64,000 nt of DNA. Origin: Leptolyngbya ohadii IS1 (GTDB lineage Bacteria > Cyanobacteriota > Cyanobacteriia > Elainellales > Elainellaceae). The first letter of the stretch is position 1. Every line of letters begins with the position of its first letter. The notes beneath the pieces were generated by a model that ran no database searches, was not told the origin of the DNA, and was given only the letters and a program-made list of their open reading frames with translations. This document shows positions 34,441 to 36,514 of the stretch, piece by piece. A program made the translations under genes and the position numbers. The stretch lies in contig NZ_NKFP01000006.1 in the NCBI RefSeq assembly GCF_002215035.1, positions 570,530 through 634,529 on the forward strand, in the 5' to 3' direction.

Positions 34441-34597
34441 TCAGAATTAATCGGGAAGAGGCGGTCATAAGCCGGGTTCTGTCTCTTGTAGGCGACCGCC
34501 CCAAGCGGCAGTTATCTATCTGGGATGCCTGTTGCCAGACACCTCTAGCGGATTTCGCAGCGTCCGAGAACGCTACCCGGAGCAGGAAAAAGACCAA

Positions 34598-34714
34598 CCC
34601 TTGCTCCTTCGACCTTGCTTCCGACCGGGGTTTACCGAGCCAACGCCTCTCGACGTTGCTGGTGCGCTCTTACCGCACCTTTGCACCCTTACCGTTTTGG
34701 AGTGGGGAATCAGG
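34598..34714. repeat. Inverted repeat A, copy 1 (inside rnpB)
   Basis: This 117-bp part of the intact rnpB gene is present again, base for base, in inverted orientation at 35069-35185. Boundaries were set by the first mismatches (34597 and 34715). Confidence 0.95.
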
Positions 34715-34738
34715 ATTGGGAAATGAGGATTAATCTCC

Positions 34739-34772
34739 CCTGCTCCCTGCTCCCTTGCTCCCCTGCTTCCTC
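34739..34772. repeat. Tandem 7-mer-like repeats inside the rnpB P12 arm
   Basis: CCCCTGCTCCCTGCTCCCTT and onwards: units of CTGCTCC(C). The same type of repeat occurs between genes at 50221-50250. Short tandem repeats within rnpB are known in heterocyst-forming cyanobacteria, so this is a recognised kind of insertion. Confidence 0.65.
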
Positions 34773-34930
34773 TGCGGCGGTATCTTTCTGTGGCACTATC
34801 CTCACGCTCACGCGCACTGGGCGTTACCCAGCAGGTCTGGTCTTTCGGAAGCCCGGACTTTCCTCAGGCAAATTGCCCGTAACTGCCTCGCCTCCTCTTC
34901 CCTTGATTCCAGTCTATTACGGGGGGGTGG

Positions 34931-35084
34931 GGAGTGGGGAATCAGGTGGATGACGCGGCGAACTTTTCCGGCAAAGTTGGTGATGGAGCTGCTGTCCCAG
35001 TCGATCGCGATCGACTGGGACAGCAGCTCCATCACCAACTTTGCCGGAAAAGTTCGCCGCGTCATCCACCTGATTCCCCACTCC
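34931..35084. repeat. Perfect 154-bp palindrome (two 77-bp arms, no spacer)
   Basis: I checked every base: 34931-35007 is the exact reverse complement of 35008-35084. The centre is TCGATCG|CGATCGA at 35001-35014, an overlapping HIP1-like core. Pairing stops at 34930/35085. Most of the left arm (34937-35013) is also present as a direct copy inside the neighbouring gene at 35597-35673. It lies upstream of rnpB and would overlap any rnpB promoter region. Confidence 0.97.
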
Positions 35085-35185
35085 AAAACGGTAAGGGTGC
35101 AAAGGTGCGGTAAGAGCGCACCAGCAACGTCGAGAGGCGTTGGCTCGGTAAACCCCGGTCGGAAGCAAGGTCGAAGGAGCAAGGG
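35069..35185. repeat. Inverted repeat A, copy 2 (rnpB fragment, plus strand)
   Basis: 117 bp identical to the reverse complement of 34598-34714, so an internal piece of rnpB in opposite orientation. It covers part of the P12 arm and the conserved GGTAAGGGTGCAAAGGTGCG region, but neither end of the RNA, so it cannot be a functional RNase P RNA. Its first 16 bases overlap the right arm of the palindrome. Confidence 0.95.
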
Positions 35186-35245
35186 AGCAGGGGAGAGAGG
35201 GGGGTAGGATGTGTTAGCGCAGCACAACGCATGATTTCAGCGGGG

Positions 35246-35938
35246 TTAGTCGGGGAGCCAGGGGAAGTACTCCATGAGGGACGCTTTTTCGATCGTGAAG
35301 AGGCAGGGGACGTAAGCCCAGTATTCGCGTTTTGCACCGTCGGCGATGTTGATAATTTGAAAGAGAAGGCGGAGGGTGAATTGCAGATTAGCTTCTCGTT
35401 CGTTGAAGAGGGCAAAGCGTCCAGCGTCGGCTTTTTCGACCTGTCCTAAATCCACGATCGCCCCTTTTGCGACCAATGTAGTTCGATCGTCGTTGGGCTT
35501 GACCAGATCTTCGGGGGCAAGGGTTGCCTGGAGGCTGCGACCGGGGGGGATGGTGCTTTTGATTTGTGGCTCGGAGAGGCTGTCGGGAGTGAGGTCGGGA
35601 ATCAGGTGGATGACGCGGCGAACTTTTCCGGCAAAGTTGGTGATGGAGCTGCTGTCCCAGTCGATCGCGATCGTAGCGGTGGCGGATTTGTTGGCAATAA
35701 CGCCTGTAATGGTGGCGGGCTGGCTAGAGAAACCGTAGCGACCCTTGAAGCTGAAATTAATGTCGAGGAATTGGCTGAGGGGCTGATCGGCGATCGTCTC
35801 TTCGCTCAACACCTGCGTCAGAGCGCCTTTCTCAAACTTAATAATGGTCTGTGCTTCCAGGGAGTTGATTGCCTGGTAAATCACGTAGGTAATGCTGATC
35901 AGGTAAACCGTCAAGATGATCAGATCGGTCTGGTTCAT
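35246..35938 (-). CDS. Single-pass membrane protein of unknown function
   Basis: A 230-residue protein with one N-terminal membrane segment (LIILTVYLISITYVIYQAI, residues 6-24) and a beta-rich domain behind it (for example FSFKGRYGFSSQPATITGVI and KVRRVIHLIPDLTPDS). Function unknown to me. Its ATG overlaps the TGA of the upstream narM-like gene (ATGA), so the two were designed to be translated together. Residues 89-113 are coded by the 77-bp sequence that was copied into the palindrome at 34937-35013. The first 46 codons are duplicated at 36274-36412. Confidence 0.75.
   Translation of the reverse strand: MNQTDLIILTVYLISITYVIYQAINSLEAQTIIKFEKGALTQVLSEETIADQPLSQFLDINFSFKGRYGFSSQPATITGVIANKSATATIAIDWDSSSITNFAGKVRRVIHLIPDLTPDSLSEPQIKSTIPPGRSLQATLAPEDLVKPNDDRTTLVAKGAIVDLGQVEKADAGRFALFNEREANLQFTLRLLFQIINIADGAKREYWAYVPCLFTIEKASLMEYFPWLPD
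35597..35673. repeat. Source-like copy of the palindrome arm
   Basis: 77 bp identical to 34937-35013 in the same orientation, exactly 660 bp apart. Because this copy lies within an intact reading frame, it is the likely donor of the palindrome arms. Confidence 0.95.
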
Positions 35939-36040
35939 ACCGTCGCCAGGTTAAATTCGCGCAGGGCGGGCAGGAAGTTTTTGTTTTCGTGCTGCGATCG
36001 GCTCAGCTTAATCAGGGCAAATCGCTGCATGGCGGTTAAA
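35800..36040. repeat. Direct repeat B, copy 1
   Basis: 241 bp identical to 36274-36514 at a constant offset of 474. This copy spans the junction of the membrane-protein gene (first 46 codons) and the 3' end of the narM-like gene, in their natural context. Confidence 0.95.
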
Positions 36041-36273
36041 CTCGCCCACTGTTCAAGGGTGAGCGGTACGCCGACGGACTCGCTTTGTGCCTGGACGCTT
36101 TCGGGAATTTGCGTGGCGTTTTGCCAGTCGGGATGGGGGTCGATCGGCAGGTCGGAGGGGGTTTCGCCGGAGCGGGTTTGGACGAGTTGGCGGAGATGCG
36201 ATCGGTATTCCTGAATTTCTGTCTCAGTGTCGCAGGGCATTGCGACTAGGGTTTGGCGATCGTCTTGGGAGAG
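35935..36273 (-). pseudogene. narM: NarM-like nitrate reductase associated protein, 5'-truncated
   Basis: The open frame reads LSQDDRQTLVAMPCDTETEI and ends QRFALIKLSRSQHENKNFLP then ALREFNLATV. This matches my memory of the nitrate reductase associated protein family (NarM, about 150 residues), needed for nitrate reductase maturation in cyanobacteria. Only about the last 113 residues remain: upstream of LSQDDRQ the frame runs through three foreign codons into a stop at 36280, where the 241-bp duplication begins (36274). Translation could still start at Met (36240), giving 101 residues, and would still couple to the next gene. Likely non-functional unless that short form works. Confidence 0.68.
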
Positions 36274-36514
36274 CTTCGCTCAACACCTGCGTCAGAGCGC
36301 CTTTCTCAAACTTAATAATGGTCTGTGCTTCCAGGGAGTTGATTGCCTGGTAAATCACGTAGGTAATGCTGATCAGGTAAACCGTCAAGATGATCAGATC
36401 GGTCTGGTTCATACCGTCGCCAGGTTAAATTCGCGCAGGGCGGGCAGGAAGTTTTTGTTTTCGTGCTGCGATCGGCTCAGCTTAATCAGGGCAAATCGCT
36501 GCATGGCGGTTAAA
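36274..36514 (-). pseudogene. Duplicated fragments: 3' end of narM-like gene plus first 46 codons of the membrane-protein gene (direct repeat B, copy 2)
   Basis: Second copy of the 241-bp repeat. On the minus strand it begins with the last 34 codons of the narM-like gene (36514-36410), joined upstream to unrelated DNA, and continues with the ATG and first 46 codons of the 230-residue protein (36412-36274). That frame then runs into the narM remnant out of frame (ALPRRSPNPSRNALRH) and stops, giving a 62-residue chimera at 36224-36412. It contains the whole membrane segment, so a small membrane peptide could in principle be made. Confidence 0.85.

What the first reader, a model, noticed from the sequence alone, without database searches (positions are those of the whole stretch)
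34931..35084. Perfect 154-bp palindrome upstream of rnpB, built from a copied gene fragment
Arms of 77 bp are exact reverse complements with no spacer, centred on TCGATCG|CGATCGA. 77 bp of the left side (34937-35013) also occur once more, 660 bp away, inside an intact reading frame (35597-35673), which looks like the donor. The shared GGGAATCAGG at 34705-34714 (rnpB) and 35597-35606 is a plausible microhomology. Perfect spacer-free palindromes of this size are normally unstable in bacteria (SbcCD-type cleavage), so either this is a very recent template-switch event, the host tolerates it, or the assembly is wrong here. The HIP1-like centre suggests a hairpin fold-back primed at a self-complementary site.
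Basis: seen in the sequence. Interest (0 to 1): 0.75.

Follow-up and report, generated by a model that had tools for sequence, protein, structure and literature searches.

The report
Palindrome made by assembly error
A perfect 154-letter mirror-image sequence near a ribozyme gene in a cyanobacterium is most likely not real DNA but a stitching error in the genome assembly, one of many in this assembly, and such errors also cut conserved genes short.

Summary
In detail: 34931-35084 is a perfect, spacer-free 154-bp palindrome, and 77 bp of it occur a third time in a neighbouring gene. It belongs to a larger patchwork (34921-35243 and 36274-36514) of exact copies of rnpB and of genes X and Y, each less than 0.7 kb from its source.

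Such patchworks recur. In 1.66 Mb sampled of this 7.9-Mb genome there are 12 perfect palindromes (arms 13-722 bp) and 44 exact inverted repeats of at least 40 bp within 2 kb (10 of the 44 are the palindromes). Samples of 0.4 Mb from two relatives have neither.

The joins look like software. Of 40 join rows, 17 overlap by exactly 10 nt, 12 by more, 2 by 9, none by 6-8 and 9 by 1-5 (unexplained). The 7 palindromes with a third copy fold at natural 10- or 12-bp palindromes. One published gap closer accepts overlaps of 10 nt.

Joins cut conserved genes: single-copy purH, the start of pdxJ and, in this window, gene Y. SbcC and SbcD homologues are present. I conclude assembly or gap-closing artefact (0.85), then amplification chimera (0.10); real template switching is unlikely (0.05). 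No reads were available.

The parts
34453..34898 (-). rnpB (RNase P RNA, class A), complete
   Evidence: Rfam RF00010, 232.2 bits, model 1-367 of 367
34598..34714 (+). source of the 117-bp inverted copy
   Evidence: exact match to 35069-35185, reverse complement
34921..35243 (.). extra stretch (323 bp); the same-genus genome FACHB-502 has 24 bp here
   Evidence: alignment ends at window 34920 and resumes at 35244
34931..35084 (.). perfect 154-bp palindrome
34937..35013 (+). copy of gene X fragment 35597-35673
   Evidence: 77-bp exact match
35002..35013 (.). 12-bp self-complementary CGATCGCGATCG at which the copy meets its own reverse complement
   Evidence: third copy runs 6 bases past the centre; overlap row of 12
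35002..35078 (-). inverted copy of gene X fragment 35597-35673
   Evidence: 77-bp exact match
35069..35078 (.). 10-nt overlap between the inverted X piece and the inverted rnpB piece
35069..35185 (-). inverted copy of rnpB 34598-34714
   Evidence: 117-bp exact match
35246..35938 (-). gene X, 230-aa reading frame, no Pfam family; same length as in FACHB-502
35597..35673 (+). source of the palindrome arms inside gene X
35935..36240 (-). gene Y (Nitr_red_assoc, PF09655), 5' part missing: profile 49-144 of 144
   Evidence: FACHB-502 homologue covers 1-144; upstream the frame runs into the duplicated block
35800..36040 (+). source of the direct duplication
36274..36514 (+). direct copy of 35800-36040, where the 5' part of gene Y would be expected

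Best explanation
The palindrome is an artefact of genome assembly. I infer that the assembly had weak or repetitive spots between rnpB and gene X, and again at the 5' end of gene Y, and that these were filled with pieces of adjacent sequence, in either orientation, joined where two ends shared about 10 nt. Here a piece of rnpB meets a piece of gene X through GGGAATCAGG (10 nt), and that chimera meets its own reverse complement through CGATCGCGATCG (12 nt), which gives the palindrome. Shown: the blocks, their exactness, the overlaps, the recurrence in the sampled part of this assembly and the gene truncations. Inferred: that a gap-closing or contig-merging step with a minimum overlap of about 10 nt did it; the program and the reads are unknown to me.
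For: Recurrence: 12 perfect palindromes with arms of 13 bp or more (up to 722) in 1,659,471 sampled bases of this genome, against none with arms above 10 in 400,000 bases of FACHB-502 and 400,000 of G003. Exact inverted repeats of 40 bp or more: 44 within 2 kb (10 are the palindromes), none at 2-3 kb, 6 further off; 0 in either control. Joins: 17 of 40 rows overlap by exactly 10 nt (14 distinct sequences), 12 by more, 2 by 9, 0 by 6-8, 9 by 1-5. The 7 of 12 palindromes with a third copy nearby fold at natural palindromes of 10 or 12 bp; some of these folds are also rows. Genes at joins: purH has one real copy, matching its profile only from 40 of 511, and its MGS domain covers 34-93 against 1-93 in FACHB-502; the first codons of pdxJ are replaced by mirror sequence; an Amido_AtzD_TrzD gene and a DLH gene are cut and fused, and a thioesterase domain covers 2-88 against 2-219; gene Y covers 49-144 against 1-144. 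SbcD and SbcC homologues are over cut-off, and a 460-bp perfect palindrome kills E. coli that expresses SbcCD (PMC4245961, passages). GapFiller closes a gap at an overlap of at least 10 nt by default (PMC3446322, passages).
Against: No reads, coverage or assembly method could be checked. Nine of 40 join rows have overlaps of 1-5 nt and two of 9, which a strict threshold of 10 does not explain; I did not resolve them. At the eno cluster (1 of 6 clusters examined at gene level) both neighbouring genes are intact. The genome is scored 100% complete and has one N run in the sample. GapFiller's extension step needs 29 nt and only the final merge 10, so it explains single joins better than chains of blocks. 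FACHB-502 is a draft of about 100 contigs, in which palindromes could have broken contigs. FACHB-502 also has local direct repeats (17 within 2 kb). About a fifth of this genome was sampled.
Confidence: 0.85

Rival explanations
1. Wet-lab chimeras: the DNA was amplified (for example by multiple displacement amplification), strands annealed to nearby strands or to copies of themselves at short complementary ends, and chimeric reads entered the consensus where coverage was thin.
For: MDA is reported to make palindromic reads, often with complex multi-inversion structures, that impair assembly (PMC13265396, abstract and passages). Local origin, both orientations and folds at self-complementary sites fit.
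Against: A mode at exactly 10 nt with nothing at 6-8 looks like a program setting rather than annealing (inference). I found no record of amplification; the genome's name is unknown to me.
Confidence: 0.1
2. Real and recent replication template switching (microhomology-mediated, with fold-back) in a genome that makes such events often and tolerates perfect palindromes.
For: Blocks are local, exact, in both orientations and joined at short homologies. Three of the five clusters compared lie where gene order differs from FACHB-502. rnpB, gene X and eno remain intact. Nine join rows have the short overlaps (1-5 nt) that such events can show (the comparison is recalled).
Against: Single-copy purH lacks its N-terminus, and pdxJ and gene Y are altered at joins. 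Palindromes reach 1,444 bp in a genome with SbcC and SbcD homologues. The overlap mode is exactly 10 nt. None in samples of two relatives.
Confidence: 0.05

Closest known systems
False gap closures at a minimum overlap of 10 nt (GapFiller parameter n, PMC3446322, passages)
   Same: Joins pile up at exactly 10 nt; the filler comes from within about 2 kb of the join, as read pairs anchored nearby would give.
   Different: GapFiller extends with 29-nt overlaps and tests the gap size; the program used for this genome is unknown.
Inverted chimeras of multiple displacement amplification (PMC13265396, abstract and passages)
   Same: Palindromes and multi-inversion patchworks of local sequence.
   Different: No sharp 10-nt bound is described in the passages I saw; amplification is not documented for this genome.
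Microhomology-mediated template switching in cells (recalled)
   Same: Local copies in both orientations joined at short homology.
   Different: No sharp lower bound expected (recalled); here purH, pdxJ and gene Y are cut or altered.
Engineered 460-bp perfect palindrome in E. coli (PMC4245961, passages)
   Same: Spacer-free perfect palindrome.
   Different: There it could be built in the absence of SbcCD and killed cells expressing it; here SbcC and SbcD homologues are encoded.

Membership tests
Assembly or gap-closing artefact | Same structure recurs across this assembly but not in relatives | tested here: met
   12 palindromes in 1.66 Mb sampled against 0 in 0.4 Mb from each of two relatives
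Assembly or gap-closing artefact | Overlaps at joins show a program-like lower bound | tested here: inconclusive
   17 of 40 rows at exactly 10 nt, 12 above, 2 at 9, none at 6-8, but 9 rows at 1-5 remain unexplained
Assembly or gap-closing artefact | True sequence lost at joins, including from needed genes | tested here: met
   genes cut or altered in 5 of 6 clusters examined; the eno cluster is clean
Assembly or gap-closing artefact | Reads do not span the structure | not testable with these tools
   no reads available
MDA chimera | DNA was amplified before sequencing | not testable with these tools
In vivo template switching | Structure present in cellular DNA | not testable with these tools
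   no reads or strain
In vivo template switching | Genes with no other copy stay intact (expected under selection) | tested here: not met
   purH has one real copy and is truncated
Tolerant host (no SbcCD) | sbcC or sbcD absent or broken | tested here: not met
   SbcD 242.5 bits, SbcC 498.2 bits, both over cut-off, no stops; activity not tested

The most novel reading that the evidence does not exclude
The palindromes are real: this cyanobacterium undergoes genome-wide local fold-back template switching primed at self-complementary sites of 10-12 bp, keeps perfect palindromes of up to 1.4 kb despite encoding SbcCD, and lives with an altered purH and pdxJ.
Probability: 0.04. Interest if true: 0.85.

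Novelty: not a real feature. Interest (0 to 1): 0.12.

Why it matters
It warns that a genome held to represent its species, scored 100% complete, probably carries patchwork joins that cut real genes and create false palindromes and duplications. The two signs found here (exact local inverted repeats, and join overlaps peaking at 10 nt) could be used to screen other assemblies. If the structures were real, they would overturn expectations about palindrome stability in bacteria.

Tried and rejected
Considered a k=77 de Bruijn artefact because the arms and the third-copy match are both 77 bp long. Dropped: other blocks have many different lengths, and what recurs is the 10-nt overlap.

Considered loss of SbcCD. 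Rejected: both homologues are present.

Considered an old, conserved element upstream of rnpB. Not supported: the only other genome held of the genus has 24 bp there, and in G006, same family, the two aligned parts are 78 bp apart.

Looked for divergence between copies as a sign of age. BLAST extends past the exact cores, so identities below 100% were not informative.

Tried to name the genome or find its assembly method. The search for related loci in genome contigs returned only FACHB-502. Four literature searches gave no paper that I could tie to this genome; of their hits I saw passages of PMC8634303 only, which is about NIES strains. Of the searches on MDA chimeras and on misassembly, the second led to PMC13265396.

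Full report
What is there. The window holds a perfect 154-bp palindrome at 34931-35084 with 77-bp arms and no spacer. It is the only perfect palindrome with arms of 9 bp or more in 64 kb. 34937-35013 equals 35597-35673 inside the 230-aa gene X (35246-35938, minus). rnpB lies at 34453-34898, minus strand.

The palindrome is part of a patchwork. 35069-35185 is an exact inverted copy of rnpB 34598-34714 (117 bp), and 36274-36514 is an exact direct copy of 35800-36040 (241 bp). Along the plus strand the blocks are: X fragment, inverted X fragment, inverted rnpB fragment, a short spacer with a repeat found elsewhere in the genome, then gene X. The inverted X and inverted rnpB pieces overlap by exactly 10 nt (CCTGATTCCC). 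The X piece and its inverted copy overlap by the 12-nt self-complementary CGATCGCGATCG.

What the place looks like elsewhere. The only other genome held of this genus is FACHB-502, recognised by its contig length (451607). It aligns up to window 34920 and again from 35244, with 24 bp between. So 323 bp here stand where the relative has 24. In G006 (same family) the two aligned parts are 78 bp apart. That search took 60 genomes, the own one included; 58 had a match. Its list of rows was cut. Among the rows shown only the own genome matched the whole palindrome; other genomes' matches to the inverted rnpB piece are their ordinary rnpB.

It is not alone. I sampled 1,659,471 bases of the 7,902,459-base genome (C6:1-400000, the window, C6:634530-1430000, C4:200001-600000). 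Perfect palindromes with arms of at least 13 bp: 12, with arms 39, 510, 77, 24, 13, 314, 722, 393, 158, 16, 124 and 50. None in the sample has arms of 10-12, so these form a separate population. In 400,000 bases each of FACHB-502 and G003 (single contig) the longest arms are 8 and 10. Exact inverted repeats of at least 40 bp: 44 start within 2 kb of each other (10 of these are the palindromes themselves), none at 2-3 kb, 6 further apart; 0 and 0 in the controls. Direct repeats of that size within 2 kb: 36, against 17 in FACHB-502 and 1 in G003, so direct repeats alone do not set this genome apart. The controls are smaller than the sample, and FACHB-502 is a draft.

How the pieces are joined. 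Where two blocks, each with another exact copy of at least 30 bp within 6 kb, meet or overlap by up to 30 nt, I measured the shared sequence: 40 rows, with 9 at 1-5 nt, 0 at 6-8, 2 at 9, 17 at exactly 10, and 12 at 11 or more. The 17 rows hold 14 distinct sequences (one occurs four times, counting its reverse complement), and one window join appears twice (10 and 16), so rows are not all independent. The same scan gave 4 rows in FACHB-502 (overlaps 2, 3, 26, 26) and none in G003. For 7 of the 12 palindromes a third copy within 6 kb runs through the centre; in all 7 the natural self-complementary site at the fold is 10 or 12 bp. Some of these folds are also rows, so the two results overlap. A pile-up at 10 is what a minimum-overlap setting would give; I would not expect it from cells or polymerases (inference). 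GapFiller counts a gap as closed if the two extensions overlap by at least 10 nt by default (PMC3446322, passages). I do not know which program was used here, and the nine short overlaps remain unexplained.

Genes at the joins. Six clusters were examined at gene level against FACHB-502; in five, at least one gene is cut or altered. (1) Window: gene Y matches Nitr_red_assoc only from profile 49 to 144, FACHB-502 from 1 to 144. Upstream its frame runs into the duplicated block, and the missing part was not found in the sampled 1.66 Mb. rnpB and gene X are complete. (2) C6:304053: purH has one real match in the whole genome, profile 40-511 (a second, 22-bit match is below cut-off), and it starts inside palindrome 304907-304984. 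Its MGS domain covers 34-93 of 94, against 1-93 in FACHB-502. About 43 residues are missing and were not found in the sample. (3) C6:308702: about the first five residues of pdxJ are replaced by mirror sequence; the profile matches from 4 of 239, and an inverted partial copy also scores over cut-off. This is a mild change. (4) C6:1330682: an Amido_AtzD_TrzD gene loses its end (profile to 332 of 358, against 358) and a DLH-family gene loses its start, and they read as one frame of 636 aa. (5) C6:1363154: a thioesterase domain covers 2-88 of 226, against 2-219 in FACHB-502. About 180 residues are missing from the frame; 79 of them occur twice in the adjacent palindrome. (6) C6:1343081: eno and its neighbour are intact, beside an extra inverted N-terminal fragment of eno. 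This last cluster does not point to an artefact.

Two more clusters (C4:509525 and C4:514055) were compared at DNA level only. There too inverted copies stand in stretches where the FACHB-502 sequence has no collinear match. Of the five clusters covered, three (C6:304053, 1343081, 1363154) lie where gene order changes against FACHB-502, which fits either false joins or real rearrangement.

Could the host tolerate it? SbcD (242.5 bits) and SbcC (498.2 bits) homologues are present without stops. In E. coli a 460-bp perfect palindrome kills cells expressing SbcCD (PMC4245961, passages). That does not prove that the cyanobacterial enzymes act alike.

Conclusion. The most likely explanation is false joining during assembly or gap closing (0.85). 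Chimeras from DNA amplification come next (0.10): MDA makes palindromic, multi-inversion reads that impair assembly (PMC13265396, abstract and passages). A real hyper-template-switching genome is improbable (0.05), mainly because purH and gene Y are cut at joins and because of the 10-nt mode. Unamplified long reads would settle it.

Noticed in passing
G000 C6:304907-306393: purH lacks about its first 43 residues relative to FACHB-502, starting inside a perfect palindrome; no other real copy was found in the genome.
   Followed up: yes
G000 C6:1363154-1365861: Two overlapping perfect palindromes of 1,444 and 786 bp beside a gene with a shortened thioesterase domain.
   Followed up: partly
G000 C6:12722-13082: A run of 361 N, the only one in the 1.66 Mb sampled; a scaffold gap or a withheld stretch.
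   Followed up: no
window 34699-34771: rnpB carries an extra repeat-like stretch relative to FACHB-502; part of it (around 34732-34775) resembles sequences at many other places in the genome.
   Followed up: no
window 35176-35240: A short repeat (around AGGATGTGTTAGCG); this stretch or part of it has similar sequence at 14 other places in the genome.
   Followed up: no
G000 C6:387489-391994: Inverted repeat with copies 3-4 kb apart at about 94% identity, perhaps a mobile element or paralogues, different in kind from the exact patchworks.
   Followed up: no
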